From positions 124,001 through 188,000 of the forward strand of contig NZ_NQKQ01000001.1 of the NCBI RefSeq assembly GCF_002269505.1: DNA of 64,000 nucleotides. The letters run 5' to 3'. This stretch comes from Pseudomonas fragi. GTDB taxonomy: Bacteria > Pseudomonadota > Gammaproteobacteria > Pseudomonadales > Pseudomonadaceae. Positions 37,317 to 46,265 of the stretch are shown piece by piece. Position 1 is the stretch's first letter, and the number at the start of each line of letters is the position of its first letter. The notes below the pieces were generated by a model. The model ran no database searches. It saw nothing but the letters and a program-made list of their open reading frames with translations, and was not told the DNA's origin. The translations under genes were made by a program, and so were the position numbers.

Positions 37317-37403
37317 GCCCAGATGGTGAAATTGGTAGACACGCCAGCTTCAGGTGCTGGTGATCGCAAGGTCGTGGAAGTTCGAGTCTTCTTCTGGGCA
37401 CCA
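37317..37403 (+). tRNA. tRNA-Leu (anticodon CAG)
   Basis: 87 nt including an encoded CCA. The acceptor GCCCAGA pairs with TCTGGGC, the anticodon loop TTCAGGT carries CAG, and a long variable arm (class II) and a GTTCGAGTC T loop follow. Confidence 0.97.
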
Positions 37404-37442
37404 ATTCGAGATTGCAGAGTAGTACACTCTTCAGCCTCACAC

Positions 37443-37466
37443 AAAAACCCGCGAAAGCGGGTTTTT
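37443..37466 (+). terminator. Terminator of the first tRNA-Leu
   Basis: AAAACCCGC-GAAA-GCGGGTTTTT, a GC stem with GAAA loop and T-run, 40 nt after the tRNA. Confidence 0.9.
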
Positions 37467-37514
37467 GCATTCCAGGTCAGCTAAGCCCCTGATTTAATAA
37501 AATTAAAACAGGGG

Positions 37515-37543
37515 TTTACAGATCGAAAAGCTCTCCGTATTAT
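37515..37543 (+). promoter_or_regulatory. Sigma-70 promoter of the second tRNA-Leu
   Basis: TTTACA-17 bp-TATTAT, with a start point near 37550. It has the same spacing and -35 as the first tRNA promoter. Confidence 0.8.
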
Positions 37544-37577
37544 GCGCCACATCAACAGCGGCAACGTTGCTGATACT

Positions 37578-37664
37578 GCCCAGATGGTGAAATTGGTAGA
37601 CACGCCAGCTTCAGGTGCTGGTGACCGCAAGGTCGTGGAAGTTCGAGTCTTCTTCTGGGCACCA
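37578..37664 (+). tRNA. tRNA-Leu (anticodon CAG), second copy
   Basis: 87 nt with encoded CCA. It differs from the first copy at one base only, in the variable-arm region (gtgaccgc instead of gtgatcgc). The two copies start 261 bp apart. Confidence 0.97.
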
Positions 37665-37725: not shown

Positions 37726-37788
37726 AGTTTCCGGGATTCCTTCCTGCCCTCCCCGATACCTTTTATCTGCGGCCCAAAGGTCGTATTT

Positions 37789-37807
37789 GATAATCTATCT
37801 CATCCGC
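37789..37807 (+). promoter_or_regulatory. Possible Fur box upstream of the FecI-type sigma gene
   Basis: GATAATCTATCTCATCCGC matches the 19-bp Fur consensus at 11 positions by eye, about 50 bp before the GTG start. FecI-type genes in pseudomonads are usually Fur-repressed. Confidence 0.4.
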
Positions 37808-37856: not shown

Positions 37857-38363
37857 GTGCCCGACACCAATGACAGGCTCCAGCTCTACCTGACACATCG
37901 CATCGCCCTGGTCGACTACGCCGCCCCTATCGTGGGCTGCCGGGCCAAGGCTGAAGATGTGGTTCAAGACGCCTGGCTACGTTTCAGCCAGGGCGCGGAC
38001 AGTCTCATCCCGCTGACCCAACCAGTCGGCTATCTGTATCGCATCGTGCGCAACCTGGCCTTTGACCTCAATCGCCGGGCAAGCCTGGAAAACCGCCACA
38101 CCACCCACGGCGAATCACTGGACGAGCACACCTCCAACACGCCATCGCCCGAACAACAGGCTCTGCATCTGGACGAACTGCGCAAATTGCAACATGCTTT
38201 GTCGCGCTTGCCGGAACGCACGCGCCAGGCATTTGTACTGCATCGCCTGCAAGGCCTGACGTTTCAACAAATCGGCACGCAACTTGGAATATCCGTGAGC
38301 CTGGCCCACCAATTGGTCCGCGACGCCCTGACCTACTGCGCGGAACAACTGAGTGATGACTGA
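37857..38363 (+). CDS. FecI-type ECF RNA polymerase sigma factor
   Basis: 168 residues. Region 2 (CRAKAEDVVQDAWLRF, about residues 29-44; then GYLYRIVRNLAFDLNRR) and region 4 (LPERTRQAFVLHRLQGLTFQ, then IGTQLGISVSLAHQLVRDAL) are of the iron-starvation ECF class. Such factors are released by a FecR partner when a TonB-dependent receptor binds its ligand. It starts with GTG at 37857 (MPDTNDRLQ). It overlaps the FecR gene, and its presumed target is the receptor gene at 39559. Confidence 0.92.
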   Translation: MPDTNDRLQLYLTHRIALVDYAAPIVGCRAKAEDVVQDAWLRFSQGADSLIPLTQPVGYLYRIVRNLAFDLNRRASLENRHTTHGESLDEHTSNTPSPEQQALHLDELRKLQHALSRLPERTRQAFVLHRLQGLTFQQIGTQLGISVSLAHQLVRDALTYCAEQLSDD

Positions 38364-39330
38364 TCGACCGCCCCCGAACCCGATATGGGAAACCGCACTG
38401 GACTGGCTGCTGCTGATCCAGGAGAACCCGGACGACCCCGAACTCAATGCGCGCCTGAACCACTGGCGGGCCAGCGCCCCCGAGCATGACGCGGCCTATC
38501 GCAAGGCCCTGAAAGTCTGGAGCTTGAGCGGCGAAGCCTTGAGCCTGCCGGTTGCTACAGAGCCAGCACCGATGCCGACGGCTTTACGCCCTCCCACCCG
38601 CCTGAGCCGGCGCAAGCGCGCACTGGTCGGTGCCGCCGTAGCCGCCAGCGCCCTGCTGATGTGGGGCCCCGACTGGCAAGCGATGCAAGCCGACTACCGC
38701 AGCCCCACCGCCGAACACCGCACCGTCGCGCTCAGCGATGGCAGTCAGATGCTTCTAGACAGCAATACCCTTGCCGATGTGCAGTTCAACCCTGAACAGC
38801 GAGAAGTCACGCTATTGCGCGGTCAGGCATTTTTCTCGGTGACCCACGATGCCAACCGCGCCTTCTACGTCAACGCCGGTGACGTACGGGTTCGGGTGAC
38901 CGGTACCGCGTTTGCGGTCAATCTGGACGACAACGGTGTCGACGTCAGCGTCGAGAGCGGCACGGTTGCGGTGCAAACACCGCAAGCATCGGTTTCGGCC
39001 ACGCACCTGCTGGGCCATGGCGACCAACTGCACTTCACTGCGAACGGCCAGCGCACGCGCATCGTGCAATTGCCCCAGGAGCAAATCGCACCCTGGCGTC
39101 GCTGGCAGCTGGTGGCGGTCGATCAATCGATCGATGACGTGATCACGCAGCTGCGCCGCTATCAGCCGGGCCTGATTCTGCTGACCGACAAGGCGCTGGG
39201 GCAACGTCGCATCACCGCGGCTCTGAACCTGCGCGACCCCAAGCGCGCACTGCAAACCGCCATTGCCCCTCTGGGCGGGCGCCTGCAGGACAATGTGCCC
39301 TACACCCTGATCGTCTCGAGCAAACCCTGA
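38356..39330 (+). CDS. FecR-type transmembrane sigma regulator
   Basis: 324 residues. The N-terminal cytoplasmic DUF4880-like segment (WETALDWLLLIQENPDDPEL, HWRASAPEHDAAYRKALKVW) binds the sigma factor. One membrane span is at about residues 85-100 (ALVGAAVAASALLMWGP). A periplasmic FecR domain (DGSQMLLDSNTLADVQFN, VTGTAFAVNL) and a C-terminal STN-like segment that meets the receptor follow. The ATG at 38356 overlaps the sigma gene by 8 nt; a GTG at 38353 is an alternative. Confidence 0.9.
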   Translation: MTDRPPPNPIWETALDWLLLIQENPDDPELNARLNHWRASAPEHDAAYRKALKVWSLSGEALSLPVATEPAPMPTALRPPTRLSRRKRALVGAAVAASALLMWGPDWQAMQADYRSPTAEHRTVALSDGSQMLLDSNTLADVQFNPEQREVTLLRGQAFFSVTHDANRAFYVNAGDVRVRVTGTAFAVNLDDNGVDVSVESGTVAVQTPQASVSATHLLGHGDQLHFTANGQRTRIVQLPQEQIAPWRRWQLVAVDQSIDDVITQLRRYQPGLILLTDKALGQRRITAALNLRDPKRALQTAIAPLGGRLQDNVPYTLIVSSKP

Positions 39331-39337
39331 GCCTCCC

Positions 39338-39424
39338 TGTGGGAGCGGGCTTGCTCGCGATAGCATCAACGCGCTCACCGAGAGAAACCGCGGTGCCAGC
39401 ATCGCGAGCAAGCCCGCTCCCACA
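39338..39424. repeat. REP doublet (REPIN), 87 bp
   Basis: Perfect arms tgtgggagcgggcttgctcg and complement. It separates fecIR from the receptor gene, so the receptor needs its own promoter. Confidence 0.9.
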
Positions 39425-39508
39425 GCACAGGGCTTGCGCTGACGAAACTATTTTCATTTATTTCTGGAAATCCTGAAGGCCCGGGAGTCTTTACCTACGA
39501 ACGTCACT

Positions 39509-39527
39509 GATAAAGATTCGCATTAGT
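39509..39527 (+). promoter_or_regulatory. Putative Fur box upstream of the TonB-dependent receptor
   Basis: GATAAAGATTCGCATTAGT matches the Fur 19-mer at 13 positions by eye, with both outer GATAA and CATTA blocks intact. A GGAAAT word at 39466-39471 could be part of an ECF promoter, but the spacing to a -10 is unclear. Confidence 0.5.
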
Positions 39528-39558: not shown

Positions 39559-42333
39559 ATGCCTTCTTCGCGTTTGCGTTGTGTCAGTGTTGCTCGCTAT
39601 CGATCGTTGTCCCTGGCCCTGCTGCTCGGCCTGCCCTCACTGGCTATCGCTGCCAGCCCGGTAGCCGACACGCAAATCAGCCATCAACAACTGCACTTCC
39701 AGATCCCGGCCCAGCCTTTGGCCAGCGCCCTGATTGCGTTTTCCCAACAGTCGGGCTGGCAGGTCAGCGCGGAAAGCACATTGCTCAACGGCCTGAACAG
39801 CTCGCCTGTGGATGGCCCCATGAGCGCCGAGAAAGCCCTGGCACGCCTGCTGCGCGACAGTGGCATGCAATGGGAAATCACCTCCGCCGACAGCGCCTCG
39901 ATTCTGCCGCCTGCCGCAAACGATGTGCTGCTGATCAAAAGCACACCCATCACCGCCATGGAGCCGATATTTCAGGGCGAACAGGTAATCGACCGGCAAA
40001 TGATCGAAAACCTGCCATCGGGCAACGGCGACATCACCAGCCTGCTGCGCACCAACCCCAATGTGCAGTTCGACAACAGCCAGCTGAGCAGCAAAAACCC
40101 GGGGGAAATTGCCCCCGCCGATATCAGCATCAACGGCGCACGGCCCTGGCAGAACCTGTTTATCGTTGACGGCATGAGCATGAACAACGACCTGGACCCG
40201 GGCAACAGCAACGACGACTTCGATGAAATACCGGGCCGCAGCCAGGGCCTGGCACTCGACACCGACCTGCTGGAAAACATCAAGGTCTACGACAGCAACG
40301 TACCGGTGGAATTTGGCGGCTTCAATGGCGGTGTAGTCGAAGCCAATACCCGCGACCCCAGCAAGGAACTGCACGGTAAGGTGTCGGTACAAATGACCCG
40401 CTCCGAGTGGACGCGCTATCACTTGAACAAAGACGACCCGGACCTGGAAAACTTCAAGGCCGGCTTTGGCAACAGCTACCAGCCTGACTTCGAAAAAGTC
40501 ATCACCCGCGCCACCCTCGAAGGCCATCTGACCGATAACTTCGGATTGCTCGGCACCTTCTCGCGTAAAGAGTCCACCATGCCGACCCGCCTGTTTTCCG
40601 TGTCCAACCAGACCGAAACGGCAATGGCGACCGAAGAACAATCGCGGCGCATCGACAACTATTTCCTCAAGGCCACCTGGCAGATCAACGACGACTGGAA
40701 GCTCGACACCACCCTGACCCACGCACCGGAAACCGCCCGCACTTACGGCCCCAACTCACTGGTATCCGGGCGCGACATGGATGCCGGTGGCGACAGTATC
40801 AGTACGCGCCTGGTATGGAACGCACCCTTGGCCCGGGTAGAGCAGAACCTGAGCTGGAGCGAGCTGAACACCTCACGCTATTCCGACCGCGACTACATGA
40901 TCCTCTGGCGAACTTCGGCCAGTCGCGACTGGAGCACCTCGGCATTCGCCACCGAAGGCGGTTTTGGCGATATCGAAGAAACCCAAAAAACCCTGGCTTA
41001 CAAACTCAAGGCCGACTGGAACAGCTTCAAATGGCTGGGCGTGGATCATTCGCTGCAAACTGGCCTGGAGCTGTCGCAAAACTCGGCCAGCTATGAGCGC
41101 GGTACGCCCTACAGCAGCTATGCGGTGGACAAGACCACGTCCTGCACCGGCAATGACCCGCTGTGTTCAATGGCGCCAACCATCAATGGCTGGCCTGGCC
41201 AGTACGCCAACAAGATGACCGTCACCCAAGGCAAAATTGCTTTCGACACACGCTCTTGGGCGCTGTACCTGCAAGACGAGATGCACTACAAGCGCCTCAC
41301 CGTCAGGCCCGGCATCCGGGTGGACGGCGACAACTACATGAACCAGATCACCTTCGCCCCGCGCCTGGCCACAGAGCTGGACATTTTTGGCGACGGCAAG
41401 ACCCGCCTTACCGCCGGTGCCAACCGCTACTACGGACGCAACCTCTATGCCTATCGCCTGCGCGACGGCATTGCCTCCATGAGCACCGAACACACCCGCA
41501 AGACCCAGACGTCCGCCTGGGAACTGAGCAAGCACACCCCTAACGACAGCAAGTTCAACCAGCTCAAGGTGCCTTACGACGACGAACTGACCCTGGGCCT
41601 GAGCCATGTGCAATGGAACACCGAATTCGCCGTCAAATACGTCAACCGCAAGGGCCGCGATCAGGTCAGCCGCGCCTGGGGCGCGCAAATCGGCGAGCCC
41701 TCCGAAGACACCTCGACCCTGGCTGCCAACTACTACACCTACTACAACGGCGGCAAAAGCGACGCCGACATCTACACCCTCAGCATCACCCCCCTGCAAC
41801 CCTTTAACCTGGGCAGTACCCGCACCACCGCACAGTTCGCGATGGACTGGAGCAAGATCAACAACACCGGGCTGTCCAGCTACAGCGCCAGCATCGGCGC
41901 CATCTACGTGGAAGACCCGACGATCCAGTACGACGGCAAGTTCATGAAGTACTCCGACATGCCTGCCAGTAACTACAACCGCCCCTGGACCGCGCGCCTG
42001 ACCACAGTGACAGAAGTCGAGCCCCTGCACCTGACCTGGACCAACTTCCTGCGTTACCGGGACGGTTACCGACGCATTGCCTCCACCAACAAGAAGGTCG
42101 AGCACGAAGGCAGCAACGTCTATGTCTGGGAAGAAACGCCGTTTTCCGGGGCACTGACCTGGGACACCCGGGTTGCCTGGGAAATGCCCACCGCCAAGGA
42201 CCAGGCCGTGTTCGTCAACCTCGACGTGAGCAACCTGCTGGACAAAACCATCGTCAGCTCCACCGACACTAACGGCGTGCTCAACTATGAAGTCGGTCGC
42301 CAATTCATGCTGGAAGTGGGGTATAAATTTTGA
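39559..42333 (+). CDS. TonB-dependent outer-membrane transducer with STN signalling domain
   Basis: 924 residues. After a signal peptide (about 1-32, ending SLAIAA) comes an STN domain (LHFQIPAQPLASALIAFSQQ, about residues 45-65) that signals to FecR. Then a plug domain (GNGDITSLLRTNPNVQFDN, INGARPWQNLFIVDGMSMN) and a long beta-barrel ending in EVGYKF with terminal Phe, as outer-membrane porins do. The ligand is not evident; siderophores, heme or chelated metals are all possible. I chose the ATG at 39559 because the signal peptide follows; starts at 39526 and 39532 are alternatives. The next gene overlaps its stop. Confidence 0.92.
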   Translation: MPSSRLRCVSVARYRSLSLALLLGLPSLAIAASPVADTQISHQQLHFQIPAQPLASALIAFSQQSGWQVSAESTLLNGLNSSPVDGPMSAEKALARLLRDSGMQWEITSADSASILPPAANDVLLIKSTPITAMEPIFQGEQVIDRQMIENLPSGNGDITSLLRTNPNVQFDNSQLSSKNPGEIAPADISINGARPWQNLFIVDGMSMNNDLDPGNSNDDFDEIPGRSQGLALDTDLLENIKVYDSNVPVEFGGFNGGVVEANTRDPSKELHGKVSVQMTRSEWTRYHLNKDDPDLENFKAGFGNSYQPDFEKVITRATLEGHLTDNFGLLGTFSRKESTMPTRLFSVSNQTETAMATEEQSRRIDNYFLKATWQINDDWKLDTTLTHAPETARTYGPNSLVSGRDMDAGGDSISTRLVWNAPLARVEQNLSWSELNTSRYSDRDYMILWRTSASRDWSTSAFATEGGFGDIEETQKTLAYKLKADWNSFKWLGVDHSLQTGLELSQNSASYERGTPYSSYAVDKTTSCTGNDPLCSMAPTINGWPGQYANKMTVTQGKIAFDTRSWALYLQDEMHYKRLTVRPGIRVDGDNYMNQITFAPRLATELDIFGDGKTRLTAGANRYYGRNLYAYRLRDGIASMSTEHTRKTQTSAWELSKHTPNDSKFNQLKVPYDDELTLGLSHVQWNTEFAVKYVNRKGRDQVSRAWGAQIGEPSEDTSTLAANYYTYYNGGKSDADIYTLSITPLQPFNLGSTRTTAQFAMDWSKINNTGLSSYSASIGAIYVEDPTIQYDGKFMKYSDMPASNYNRPWTARLTTVTEVEPLHLTWTNFLRYRDGYRRIASTNKKVEHEGSNVYVWEETPFSGALTWDTRVAWEMPTAKDQAVFVNLDVSNLLDKTIVSSTDTNGVLNYEVGRQFMLEVGYKF

Positions 42334-43421
42334 AGACCCTGTTCCTTGGCCTGACCCTGGGCGGCCTGGCCCTGAGTGCCAACGCCTGTGATGAGCAGGC
42401 CGCCGACTACACGACCTGTATCGCCCAACAGTACCGCCAGCCCGTCGCCCAATGGCCTGCACCCCAAGTAGATGCCGATGTGCAATGGCAGGAAATGGCC
42501 GCCCTGCCCGCCCATGCCCCCGCACCACCGGAAAACACGTTCAGCGAGGCCAAGGCCGGGCTGGGCAAAAAGCTATTCAACGACCCCAAGCTCTCACGCT
42601 CCGGGCAAATCGCCTGCGCCTCGTGCCATGAAGCCGACATGGCATTTGCCGATGGCCGCCGTGTCTCTTTCGGCCATGATCGCCAAAGCGGTCGGCGCAA
42701 TGCCCCCAGCCTGGTAATGAGCGGCTACAGCCCGGCGCTGTTCTGGGACGGTCGCGGCGGCAACCTCGAACAACAGGCCATGCACCCCATCGTCGACCCG
42801 GTGGAAATGGCCTTCGACATCCCGCAACTGCTGCAACGGCTCAATACCGATAGCGCCTACCGCGAGGAGTTTGCCCAGGTTTTCGGGCCAGGCCCGATCA
42901 CCACACAGCAAACCGCCCAGGCCCTGGCCACCTTTCAGCGCACACTGGTCAGCGCCACGCGCAACACCGCCTTCGAGCAACTGTTGCGCGGGCGCCCGCA
43001 ACGCATGAGCGATGAGCAGCTCTACGGTCTGCATCTGTTTCGCACCAAGGCACGCTGCATGAACTGCCACTTCGGCCCGGCACTGAGCGACGAGCAGTTT
43101 CATAACGTCGGCCTGAGTTACTACGGGCGTAAATATGAAGACCTCGGCCGCTACGAAGTAACGCGCAAACCAGAAGACGTGGGGGCATTTCGTACGCCGT
43201 CATTGCGCCTGGTGATGAAAACCGCACCATGGATGCACAACGGCCTGTTTGTGAACATGGAAGGCACGCTGGCGTTCTACAACATGGGCATGCCTCGCCC
43301 CCGCCCCAGCGCGCAACAGGTCAACGACCCGTTGTTCCCGCGCACCAGCGACCGGCTCAAGGCGCTGAACATGGACAAGGACGAACTGCGGGCCCTGCGC
43401 AGCTTTCTCGACACGCTGTAG
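42330..43421 (+). CDS. Periplasmic diheme cytochrome c peroxidase / MauG-MbnH-like protein
   Basis: 363 residues. A short signal peptide (MKTLFLGLTLGGLALSANA) precedes two c-type heme sites: CASCH in GQIACASCHEADMAFADGR (near residue 92) and CMNCH in ARCMNCHFGPALSDEQFHN (near 240). This is the bacterial diheme peroxidase fold. The start is TTG at 42330, overlapping the receptor stop (TTGA), so the two are translationally coupled. A diheme enzyme made with a TonB receptor recalls MbnH of copper-chelator systems, but no MbnP partner is present; a role in oxidising a ligand or metal is inference. Confidence 0.88.
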   Translation: MKTLFLGLTLGGLALSANACDEQAADYTTCIAQQYRQPVAQWPAPQVDADVQWQEMAALPAHAPAPPENTFSEAKAGLGKKLFNDPKLSRSGQIACASCHEADMAFADGRRVSFGHDRQSGRRNAPSLVMSGYSPALFWDGRGGNLEQQAMHPIVDPVEMAFDIPQLLQRLNTDSAYREEFAQVFGPGPITTQQTAQALATFQRTLVSATRNTAFEQLLRGRPQRMSDEQLYGLHLFRTKARCMNCHFGPALSDEQFHNVGLSYYGRKYEDLGRYEVTRKPEDVGAFRTPSLRLVMKTAPWMHNGLFVNMEGTLAFYNMGMPRPRPSAQQVNDPLFPRTSDRLKALNMDKDELRALRSFLDTL

Positions 43422-43435
43422 GCAGCGCCTTGCTT

Positions 43436-43518
43436 TGTGTAGCTTGCCTGCGATGCAGGCACTGCGGTTTACCGGGATAACTACGTCGATACCATCGCGG
43501 GCAAGCCCGCTCCCACAC
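43436..43518. repeat. Decayed REP doublet
   Basis: The right arm (atcgcgggcaagcccgctcccaca) is intact while the left arm (tgtgtagcttgcctgcgatg) has lost several bases. It lies after the peroxidase gene. Confidence 0.7.
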
Positions 43519-43686: not shown

Positions 43687-44712
43687 ATGATGCTCCGAAA
43701 TACCCAGCTTGCGACATTTCTACTGCGCAGTTTGTCCATCGCAACTCTTGGCCTGACCCTGATCACTCCCGCCGCCTACGCTGCCGATCCTGTGACGCTG
43801 ACCCTGTACAACGGCCAGCACAAGGAAGTCGGTGACAACCTCGCCAAGGCCTTTGAGGCCAAGACCGGCATCCACGTCAACGTGCGCAAAGGCAGCAGCA
43901 ACCAGCTGGCCAGCCAGATCATGGAAGAAGGCGACCGTTCGCCGGCCGACGTGTTCTACGCCGAAGAGTCCCCGCCCCTGAACAGCCTGGGCGAACAGGG
44001 CTTTCTGGCCAAAGCCGATGACAGCACGCTGCAAGCCCTGCCCAAAGAGTATGTGGCCGCCAATGGCACCTGGATCGGTGTAACGGCGCGTACCCGCGTT
44101 GTGGCGTTCAACCCGAAAAAGATCAGCGAAGACCAATTGCCCAAGTCGGTGCTGGATTTCGCCGACCCGCAATGGCAAGGCAAGATCGGTTTTGTACCCA
44201 CCAGCGGTGCATTCCAGGAACAGGCCGTGGCCATCATCAAGCTGCACGGGCGTGAAGCTGCCGAAGAATGGCTGACCGGCCTGCGTGCGTTCGGCAAGAC
44301 TTACACCAACAACATGGTCGCACTCAAAGCGGTAGAAAACGGTGAAGTGGCTGCCGTACTGGTCAACAACTACTACTGGTTTGCCTTGCAGCGCGAAAAG
44401 GGCCAGCTGGATTCCAAGCTGTATTACTTCACCGATGGCGATGCCGGCGGTTTGATCACCGTGTCCAGCGCCGGTGTGATCAAGGCCAGCAAGCACCCCA
44501 AGGAAGCCCAGCAACTGCTGGCTTACATGGCCAGTGAAGAAGGTCAGCGGGTTATCACCAACACCACTGCTGAATACCCGATGCGCAAAGGCATGGTGTC
44601 GGAACGTGGCCTGAAGCCATTTGAAGAGCTGCAACCACCTAAAGTGACTCCGGCCGACCTGGGCAACGCCGAAGAGGCGCTGGACCTTGAACGTGATGTA
44701 GGCCTGCTCTGA
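43687..44712 (+). CDS. Ferric iron ABC transporter, periplasmic binding protein (FbpA/HitA/FutA type)
   Basis: 341 residues. A signal peptide ends near residue 32 (PAAYA|AD). The mature protein begins DPVTLTLYNGQHKEVGDNLA, the cluster D binding-protein start. The paired iron-ligand tyrosines sit in VNNYYWFALQRE, and AEYPMRKGM is a family end motif. It picks up free Fe(III) in the periplasm after outer-membrane uptake. ATG at 43687 or 43690. The permease gene follows with a 1-nt overlap; no ATPase gene is next to it. Confidence 0.9.
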   Translation: MMLRNTQLATFLLRSLSIATLGLTLITPAAYAADPVTLTLYNGQHKEVGDNLAKAFEAKTGIHVNVRKGSSNQLASQIMEEGDRSPADVFYAEESPPLNSLGEQGFLAKADDSTLQALPKEYVAANGTWIGVTARTRVVAFNPKKISEDQLPKSVLDFADPQWQGKIGFVPTSGAFQEQAVAIIKLHGREAAEEWLTGLRAFGKTYTNNMVALKAVENGEVAAVLVNNYYWFALQREKGQLDSKLYYFTDGDAGGLITVSSAGVIKASKHPKEAQQLLAYMASEEGQRVITNTTAEYPMRKGMVSERGLKPFEELQPPKVTPADLGNAEEALDLERDVGLL

Positions 44713-46265
44713 TGCTGTCGGCCGCTCAACCTGCACGCTTTACGCCCACCCGCAAGAAGCCTTCGATCTGGCTGTTGCTGCCCGTGCTGCTACTGGTGGG
44801 CCTGAGCCTGTTGCCGCTGTTGTATGTCGGCACCAAAGCCTGGCAAGCCGGGTGGTCTGAAGCCCTGCACCTGTTGTGGCGGCCTTATGTCTTCGGCCTG
44901 ATGCGCAACACCTTGCTGCTGATGGTCGGCGTCACGCTGACCTGTGCGCTGGTCGGCCTGTCCCTGGCCTGGTTGCTGGAGCGCAGCAATCTGGCAGGGC
45001 GGCGCTTGTGGGGCGTGATCCTGTGCCTGCCATTTGCCGTGCCGGCGTTTGTCAGCAGCTTCACCTGGGTATCACTCAGCGCCAGTTTCGAGGGTCTGGG
45101 CGGGGCCATTCTGGTGATGAGCTTGTCCAAGTACCCGCTGATCTTTCTGCCGGTCGCGGCAACCCTGCGCAACCTCGACCCGGCCCTGGAAGAGTCGGCC
45201 CGCACTCTGGGGCAGAATCGCTGGGGGGTGTTTTTCAACATCACCCTGCCACTGCTCTGGCCTTCGCTGCTGGCCGGTTCGTTACTGATCGCCCTGCATA
45301 TGCTGGTGGAGTTCGGGGCGCTGTCGATCATCGGCCTGCAAACCTTCACCACCGCGATTTATCAGCAATTCGAGCTGGAGTTCAGCAATGCCAATGCGGC
45401 GATGCTGTCTGCGGTGCTGCTGGTGATGTGCCTGAGCCTGTTGTGGCTGGAACTCAAGGTACGCGGCAAAGGCCGGCATATTCGTATTGGCCAGGGTGCC
45501 GCACGGCACGCGGAACAAGTAAGCCTGGGCAAGTGGTCGGTGCCGGGGCAACTGTATTGCCTGGCGCTGGCCGTGATTGGCAGCGGCATTCCGCTGGGCA
45601 TGCTGGTGTACTGGCTGGTCAAGGGCAGCTCGGCAGCATTCCCTCTGGCCGAGATTGGCGAGGCACTGTTCTCGTCGCTGTCTCTGGCGCTGGGCGGTGC
45701 AGCGCTGTGCCTGGTGCTGGCTGTACCGGTCGGATTGCTGGTGGTGCGCTACAAAGGCCCGCTGGCCATCTGGGCGGAACGCTTGCCGTACCTGCTGCAC
45801 GCCCTGCCGGGACTGGTGATTGCCCTGGCGCTGGTGTATTTCGCCCTGCACTTCGTGCCGGCGCTGTACCAAACGTCCGCGCTGTTGCTGATTGCTTATG
45901 CGCTGCTGTTTTTGCCACTGGCGCAGGCCCCCATCCGCACAGCCCTGAACAAGGCGGCCCCACAACTGGAAGAAGCCGCACGCACCCTGGGCGCCACCTC
46001 GTTTTCGGCCTTTTGCCGGGTGACCCTGCCGATCATCTTTCCGGCGCTGGGGGCCGCATTTGCCCTGGTGTTTCTGGATGCGATGAAGGAACTGACCGCC
46101 ACCTTGCTGCTCAGCCCCACCGGGCTGAACACCTTGGCGACGCAGGTTTGGTCCCACACTTCGAATATCGAGTTTGCGGCGGCGGCGCCTTATGCAGCGT
46201 TGTTGATTCTGGTGTCCGGGCTACCCGTGTACTTGCTCACCACCAGGATGTATTTGAGCCGTTGA
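44712..46265 (+). CDS. Ferric iron ABC transporter, fused permease (FbpB/HitB type)
   Basis: 517 residues with about twelve membrane spans, two permease modules in one chain. Each has an EAA coupling loop: EESARTLGQNRWGVFFNITL (about residues 160-180) and EEAARTLGATSFSAFCRVTL (about 420-440). That duplicated layout is typical of iron(III) permeases. It overlaps the binding-protein stop by 1 nt (TGATG). The partner ATPase must be encoded elsewhere. Confidence 0.92.
   Translation: MLSAAQPARFTPTRKKPSIWLLLPVLLLVGLSLLPLLYVGTKAWQAGWSEALHLLWRPYVFGLMRNTLLLMVGVTLTCALVGLSLAWLLERSNLAGRRLWGVILCLPFAVPAFVSSFTWVSLSASFEGLGGAILVMSLSKYPLIFLPVAATLRNLDPALEESARTLGQNRWGVFFNITLPLLWPSLLAGSLLIALHMLVEFGALSIIGLQTFTTAIYQQFELEFSNANAAMLSAVLLVMCLSLLWLELKVRGKGRHIRIGQGAARHAEQVSLGKWSVPGQLYCLALAVIGSGIPLGMLVYWLVKGSSAAFPLAEIGEALFSSLSLALGGAALCLVLAVPVGLLVVRYKGPLAIWAERLPYLLHALPGLVIALALVYFALHFVPALYQTSALLLIAYALLFLPLAQAPIRTALNKAAPQLEEAARTLGATSFSAFCRVTLPIIFPALGAAFALVFLDAMKELTATLLLSPTGLNTLATQVWSHTSNIEFAAAAPYAALLILVSGLPVYLLTTRMYLSR

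What the first reader, a model, noticed from the sequence alone, without database searches (positions are those of the whole stretch)
39559..43421. TonB transducer translationally coupled to a diheme peroxidase
The peroxidase starts on a TTG inside the receptor stop codon, so the two are made together. The receptor has an STN domain and the FecI/FecR pair beside it. A surface-signalled uptake system that brings its own MauG/MbnH-like diheme enzyme suggests periplasmic oxidation of the imported ligand or metal. MbnP and a chelator synthesis set are lacking, so the ligand is probably foreign and not described for this arrangement.
Basis: partly seen in the sequence, partly recalled or inferred. 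Interest (0 to 1): 0.7.

Follow-up and report, generated by a model that had tools for sequence, protein, structure and literature searches.

The report
FusA-type importer paired with MauG-like enzyme
A Pseudomonas gene cluster pairs a surface-sensing importer, related to one that steals iron from plant ferredoxin, with a MauG-like two-heme enzyme where sister clusters carry a protease, which hints that some bacteria may take iron from captured molecules by oxidising them instead of cutting them up.

Summary
In detail: receptor (39559-42333) and diheme enzyme (42330-43421) overlap by TTGA, FecI/FecR genes lie upstream, and the pair is kept in relatives. The reading needs correcting. By sequence and predicted fold the receptor belongs with FusA (ferredoxin importer) and YddB, not with siderophore receptors. 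Among 398 genomes of the genus (own included), 48 hold 49 such receptors: 15 beside this enzyme, 34 beside an M16 (FusC/PqqL-like) protease, none with both or neither. The enzyme has Tyr at MauG's heme-ligand position, where 22 of 22 congeneric CcpA-like paralogues read have Met: MauG/MbnH-like, not a plain cytochrome c peroxidase. Grinter 2019 already noted cytochrome-c-peroxidase genes beside FusA homologues lacking FusC and proposed reductive iron release, so the association is known. New here: control by cell-surface signalling, the protease/enzyme alternation between sister clades, MauG-type ligation (oxidation more likely than reduction), overlapping genes, and a parallel arrangement in Bacteroidota. 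Best reading: imported cargo, probably an iron protein or peptide, is oxidatively processed in the periplasm. Cargo and activity are unknown. Downstream FbpAB is mainly the ancestral neighbour of the insertion site.

The parts
37788..37802 (+). Fur-box-like site (TGATAATCTATCTCA) upstream of the sigma gene
   Evidence: 3 mismatches to the 7-1-7 palindrome (4 hits in the window, 0.59 expected); position conserved in the alignment, and L065 has the perfect palindrome TGATAATGATTATCA. Consensus recalled
37857..38363 (+). FecI-like ECF sigma factor
   Evidence: Pfam Sigma70_r2, r4, r4_2 above cut-off
38353..39330 (+). FecR-like anti-sigma/regulator
   Evidence: Pfam FecR 1e-19, DUF4880 4.4e-9
39466..39493 (+). 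FecI-type ECF promoter-like block GGAAAT-N16-TCTTTA before receptor and enzyme
   Evidence: GGAAAT and the final TTA invariant in 10 of 10 rows, window included. The pattern was taken from this site, so its exact match there is by construction. FecI promoter consensus recalled
39508..39522 (+). second Fur-like element in the stretch between promoter block and receptor start
   Evidence: 3 mismatches; lies in a strongly conserved block
39559..42333 (+). FusA/YddB-type TonB-dependent receptor with STN signalling domain (transducer)
   Evidence: phmmer FusA 4zgv 8e-101, YddB 6ofr 6.9e-96; AF2 model pLDDT 78.2, FusA Z 43.6 over 759 residues
39682..39906 (+). STN domain, residues about 42-116
   Evidence: HasR STN match 2m5j; predicted alpha/beta elements; Pfam STN sub-threshold
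42330..43421 (+). MauG/MbnH-like diheme enzyme, TTG start overlapping the receptor stop, signal peptide by eye
   Evidence: AF2 pLDDT 89.6; MacA/CcpA Z about 31, MauG-like 6e1c Z 30.6 (34% id), MauG Z 28.2 (38% id)
42615..42629 (+). first heme motif CASCH (residues 96-100)
   Evidence: C96, C99, H100 invariant in 33 of 33
43056..43070 (+). second heme motif CMNCH (residues 243-247)
   Evidence: C243, C246, H247 invariant in 33 of 33
43278..43280 (+). Tyr317, equivalent of MauG Tyr294 heme ligand
   Evidence: ungapped alignment, MauG residue 294; Tyr at this offset in 37 of 39 subfamily rows (the other 2 have Tyr shifted by an indel), Met in 22 of 22 CcpA-like rows
37317..37664 (+). two tRNA-Leu genes at the ancestral insertion site
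   Evidence: rnr and two tRNA-Leu beside FbpAB without the cluster in 8 of 11 loci of other genomes
43687..46265 (+). FbpA/FbpB-like ABC transporter genes: neighbours, not shown to be partners

Best explanation
A surface-signalled FusA-type import cluster in which a MauG/MbnH-like diheme oxidase stands where sister clusters have a FusC/PqqL-type protease and an SbmA-like transporter. Low iron de-represses fecI/fecR through Fur (inferred). Cargo binding to the receptor signals through STN and FecR to the sigma factor, which drives the GGAAAT promoter of receptor and enzyme (inferred from anatomy). The cargo, probably an iron-containing protein or peptide, enters the periplasm, where the enzyme made from the overlapping gene uses H2O2 to oxidise the protein or its cofactor so that iron is released without proteolysis (inferred). 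General periplasmic iron carriers, for example FbpABC, would then take it in (inferred).
For: Receptor belongs with FusA/YddB by sequence and predicted fold. Alternation: 49 receptors in 48 of 398 genomes of the genus, own included; 15 with enzyme, 34 with M16, 0 both, 0 neither. M16 and SbmA_BacA identities checked by Pfam in three loci. Enzyme clade (26 rows, all with sigma/FecR) and main protease clade (29 rows, 26 with sigma/FecR) are sisters. No close FusC-like protease found in the own genome (one query; best match 29% over a part, 1.8e-10). Tyr ligand position. Overlapping genes. Fur-like and ECF promoter-like elements. Phylum sample: 8 of the 10 strongest subfamily members, the window included, have a FusA-like receptor beside them or within 2 kb. 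Bacteroidota: the enzyme follows DUF4876 and DUF6850 genes in three loci; DUF4876-TBDT clusters stand in the iron-stimulon tables of P. gingivalis and B. thetaiotaomicron with large fold changes (passages of PMC10434189; that they rise in low iron is my reading of the tables).
Against: No cargo or activity is known. MauG's Trp199 (recalled numbering) is Ala241 here. Some relatives sit elsewhere: Moraxella near a FepA-family receptor, Xanthobacter-like loci without a FusA-like receptor. One FusA-like receptor of the class sample has neither partner (G279). In the enzyme-wide alignment the Tyr317 column read L, F or Y in the CcpA-like rows because MAFFT opened a gap there; the Met comes from ungapped counting. 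FbpAB adjacency is ancestral, so no inner-membrane importer clearly belongs to the cluster.
Confidence: 0.5

Rival explanations
1. The enzyme is a maturase: like MbnH on MbnP or MauG on methylamine dehydrogenase, it modifies aromatic residues of a partner protein made with it, possibly the receptor itself, building a binding site.
For: MauG-like 6e1c and MauG are close relatives with Tyr at the same place. Four Trp (433, 545, 567, 857) are conserved in enzyme-clade receptors (23-24 of 25 rows) and kept in at most a tenth of 27 protease-clade rows. Gene overlap favours a fixed partner.
Against: Alternation with a protease suggests action on cargo. The enzyme also occurs near FepA-family receptors and in loci without a FusA-like receptor. 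The Trp may simply shape the cargo pocket.
Confidence: 0.17
2. The enzyme oxidises a small iron carrier (xenosiderophore, catecholate) to free its iron.
For: Moraxella loci place the enzyme near a FepA-family receptor, in L101 with a putative esterase between. In methanotrophs mbnPH has been speculated to help copper release from methanobactin (passage of PMC9601215).
Against: The window receptor belongs with FusA/YddB, whose pockets were described as large enough for a small protein (section 7 of PMC6793856), and its sister clade works with a protease.
Confidence: 0.15
3. Ordinary periplasmic peroxide defence: a cytochrome c peroxidase made with an iron importer to limit Fenton damage.
For: Fold equals CcpA (Z about 31). 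It is the only CCP/MauG-type gene that the enzyme query found in the own genome.
Against: Tyr stands where 22 of 22 CcpA-like rows have Met. The pairing is with one receptor family and alternates with a protease.
Confidence: 0.13
4. A copper system of the methanobactin type.
For: MbnH-family resemblance; four Methylosinus methanobactin operons also have FecIR-like genes and a longer receptor (passages of PMC3621798).
Against: None of the cluster's genes matched a copper family; the receptor's solved relatives are FusA/YddB; Fur-like elements.
Confidence: 0.04

Closest known systems
Fus ferredoxin uptake system and protease-associated import systems (FusA/FusC, YddB/PqqL; Grinter 2019)
   Same: Receptor family; sister clusters in the genus carry the M16 protease and SbmA-like transporter
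   Different: No FusC; MauG-like enzyme instead; STN/FecI/FecR control; cargo unknown
FusA homologues with cytochrome-c-peroxidase-family neighbours (Grinter 2019, PMC6793856)
   Same: FusA-type receptor, FusC absent, diheme enzyme near it (sections 6 and 7)
   Different: That text proposes reduction; here the Tyr ligand position argues for MauG-type oxidation; signalling control and overlap are not in the main-text passages seen
MbnH/MbnP and MauG
   Same: Diheme fold and Tyr ligand position
   Different: Below the TIGR04039 and MauG cut-offs; MauG Trp199 equivalent is Ala241; no MbnP-like gene beside it by eye
FecIRA-type cell-surface signalling
   Same: Sigma, FecR, STN receptor, ECF promoter-like block
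   Different: Receptor body unlike FecA (only residues 22-120 match the FecA model)

Membership tests
FusA/YddB receptor family | sequence and fold relation of plug and barrel to FusA/YddB | tested here: met
Protease-associated import system | M16 (FusC/PqqL) protease beside the receptor | tested here: not met
   absent from the window cluster; no close homologue found in the own genome with one query
FecIRA cell-surface signalling | FecI-like sigma, FecR, STN domain | tested here: met
   STN below Pfam cut-off but matched to the HasR STN
FecIRA cell-surface signalling | cargo-induced, sigma-dependent transcription | not testable with these tools
   promoter-like block only
Bacterial cytochrome c peroxidase (CcpA) | Met ligand on the C-terminal heme (recalled) | tested here: not met
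   Tyr317
MauG | Tyr294 ligand (recalled) | tested here: met
MauG | Trp199 (recalled) and NCBIfam equivalog score | tested here: not met
   186.7 against cut-off 443.85; the residue two before the second CxxCH is Ala241
MbnH (TIGR04039) | score over curated cut-off | tested here: not met
   188.8 against 362.85
MbnH (TIGR04039) | MbnP partner gene | tested here: inconclusive
   no match in the own genome, but controls also rang nowhere

The most novel reading that the evidence does not exclude
A second way of iron piracy from imported proteins: 'oxidase-associated import', in which a MauG-type diheme enzyme made from an overlapping gene oxidatively takes apart an imported metalloprotein instead of a protease cutting it, under cell-surface signalling that senses the cargo; the two solutions alternate between sister receptor clades in one genus.
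Probability: 0.35. Interest if true: 0.82.

Novelty: new variant of a known kind. Interest (0 to 1): 0.58.

Why it matters
MauG-type enzymes have very few known substrates (recalled). A conserved pairing with a FusA-type importer, in alternation with a protease, gives a concrete hypothesis (oxidative processing of imported iron proteins) and a tractable genus to test it in. It also makes the cargo of these importers approachable, since the signalling system should report cargo binding.

Tried and rejected
FbpAB as a dedicated partner: not accepted, because rnr, two tRNA-Leu and FbpAB lie together without the cluster in 8 of 11 loci of other genomes (only about 1.5 kb each side was held; one search found FbpA in 13 of 29 genomes, own included). 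Fur 19-mer with up to 3 mismatches: no hit in the window; only the looser 7-1-7 form fits. MbnP absence: not decidable with the family search. Methanobactin and Bordetella copper-operon papers were looked at in passages and set aside. Passages of PMC8981516 (P. plecoglossicida FusA) gave no gene context. PMC7921472 concerns FUSC-family (fusaric acid) annotation in P. fragi, not evidently this cluster. Passages of PMC9249621 (Fec review), PMC11658791 (TBDT review) and PMC10470040 added nothing on the enzyme.

Limits: the receptor searches scored at most two candidates a genome, so receptor counts may be low. The tree is FastTree with several long branches; of 84 receptor rows 72 went in: L055 was left out as an 11-residue fragment, the rest that are missing were identical to another row. 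L160 and L053 entered as their open pieces. Outgroup rows L077 to L104 came from a search with the enzyme, so their label is biased, as is the 30 of 49. The protease label arises on two separate branches of the tree. CcpA-like rows: 22 of 26 loci (L013-L038) gave an ORF that passed my length and motif filter; 4 were dropped. Trp comparison: 25 and 27 rows, those over 900 residues and not identical. Of 23 phylum-sample genomes, 13 neighbourhoods were examined (the 10 strongest and 3 of the 13 weaker); 10 were not. For the M16/enzyme alternation, partners were those found by tblastn at 1e-12 with two M16 and two enzyme queries.
Full report
Observation. The receptor starts at ATG 39559 and ends at TGA 42331-42333; the diheme enzyme starts with TTG at 42330, a TTGA overlap, and ends at 43421. 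Upstream lie a FecI-like sigma gene and a FecR gene that pass Pfam cut-offs. The STN domain is below the Pfam cut-off but matches the HasR signalling domain. A GGAAAT-N16-TCTTTA block sits at 39466-39493; GGAAAT and the final TTA are invariant in the window and nine relatives. I recall this as the FecI promoter type; no call gave the consensus, and the pattern count used this site's own letters. Fur-like sites with 3 mismatches precede the sigma gene and the receptor.

What the receptor is. phmmer against solved structures gives FusA (4zgv, 8e-101) and YddB (6ofr, 6.9e-96). The predicted model (mean pLDDT 78.2) aligns to FusA with Z 43.6, rmsd 4.2, 759 residues, 30% identity, and to YddB with Z 36.2 over 728 residues, 30% identity; the other rows shown reach at most 19% identity. 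In its own genome 13 further places match it, in at most the N-terminal third.

What the enzyme is. Pfam CCP_MauG. NCBIfam ranks the MbnH family first and MauG second, both under their cut-offs. The model (pLDDT 89.6) matches MacA/CcpA (Z about 31), the 'MauG-like protein associated with microbial copper homeostasis' 6e1c (Z 30.6, 34%; MbnH by recall) and MauG (Z 28.2, 38%). Tyr317 aligns without gap to MauG residue 294, recalled as the axial Tyr ligand. At the same offset from the HxG motif 37 of 39 subfamily rows have Tyr (the other two have a Tyr displaced by an indel) and 22 of 22 CcpA-like rows from the genus have Met; in the MAFFT alignment itself a gap hides this, and the column reads L, F or Y in the CcpA-like rows. 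So the enzyme is MauG/MbnH-like in the feature thought to separate protein oxidases from peroxidases. MauG's Trp199 is not matched (Ala241, recalled numbering).

Are they kept together? In 149 genomes of the genus, own included, the close enzyme (75% identity or more) occurs in 4, each time directly after the receptor. In 398 genomes of the genus, own included, 48 hold 49 receptors: 15 with the enzyme, all with sigma/FecR; 34 with an M16 protease, 26 of them with a sigma gene upstream; none with both, none with neither. The protease and SbmA/BacA-like transporter were confirmed by Pfam in three loci; by tblastn an SbmA-like gene was seen in 33 of 34 M16 loci. In a 72-row tree an enzyme clade (26 rows) and the main protease clade (29 rows, 3 without a sigma gene nearby) are starred sisters; a second, small protease group lies apart. 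P. dryadis has one cluster of each kind in tandem (L072). One M16 query found no close FusC-like protease in the own genome.

Beyond the genus. Of 49 named loci found with the enzyme, 30 have a FusA-like receptor in the region; several of the other contigs are short. Three Bacteroidota loci have DUF4876 and DUF6850 genes before the enzyme by Pfam (L080, L084, L100), and four more look the same by eye; a TonB plug domain upstream was confirmed in L082. DUF4876-TBDT clusters stand in the iron-stimulon tables of P. gingivalis (PG1019-22, 214.5-20.8) and B. thetaiotaomicron (BT3625-33, 38.1-128.1) (passages of PMC10434189); I read these as induction in low iron, and did not check whether those clusters carry the enzyme. 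Moraxella loci place the enzyme near a FepA-family receptor, in L101 with a putative esterase between. In a phylum sample searched with the enzyme profile 23 of 398 genomes hit; of the ten with E under 1e-100, the window included, eight have a FusA-like receptor adjacent or (G838) within 2 kb on the other strand, one of them (G1140) also with sigma and FecR genes; two do not; the three weaker hits examined have none, though one has a TonB receptor of another type about 2 kb away. Searched from the receptor side, 4 other genomes of 369 in the class have it: three with the enzyme, one with neither.

Neighbourhood. FbpA/FbpB follow in 8 of the 12 named loci closest to the window (L056-L067), but rnr, two tRNA-Leu and FbpAB lie together without the cluster in 8 of 11 loci of other genomes. 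I read this as insertion of the cluster at that site; functional partnership is not shown.

Literature. Grinter 2019 (PMC6793856; sections 6 and 7 read, passages elsewhere) reports that where FusC is absent, cytochrome-c-peroxidase-family genes were found in multiple cases, and suggests they reduce an imported protein so that it releases its cofactor. The association is therefore known. In the listings of searches I saw no paper that tests the enzyme or describes the signalled form; the library holds open-licence papers only, and I opened few of those listed.

Interpretation. Shown: anatomy, family relations, alternation with the protease, Tyr at the ligand position, conservation of the pair. 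Inferred: Fur control, sigma-driven expression, protein or peptide cargo, oxidative release of iron. The main rival is a maturase acting on a partner; four Trp conserved in enzyme-clade receptors and rare in the protease clade make this testable. Peroxide defence is less likely because of the ligand change and the alternation.

Noticed in passing
L072 5124-20153 (P. dryadis; same place as L173): Both cluster types in tandem: sigma-FecR-receptor-enzyme followed by sigma-FecR-receptor-M16-SbmA.
   Followed up: partly
L080, L084, L100 (also L081-L083, L099 by eye): Bacteroidota gene order DUF4876 - DUF6850 barrel - MauG-like enzyme, with a TonB receptor upstream (Plug confirmed in L082).
   Followed up: partly
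L101, L102, L103, L104: Moraxella: the enzyme lies near a FepA-family receptor (checked in L101, L102, L104), with a putative esterase (Pfam in L101, by eye in L102); in L102 and L103 the enzyme gene is split into separate frames.
   Followed up: partly
about 39339-39425 and 43495-43518: REP-like sequence between FecR and receptor (inverted repeat) and after the enzyme, seen by eye in the sequence.
   Followed up: no
receptor residues 433, 545, 567, 857: Tryptophans conserved in enzyme-clade receptors and rare in the protease clade.
   Followed up: partly
L094, L097, L220, L221: Xanthobacter and similar loci carry the enzyme without a FusA-like receptor; in L094 an NMT1-like binding protein and ABC genes lie beside it.
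   Followed up: no
G722 (L160) and G009 (L053): Receptor genes interrupted (an in-frame TGA in one, a split frame in the other) in two genomes of the genus.
   Followed up: no
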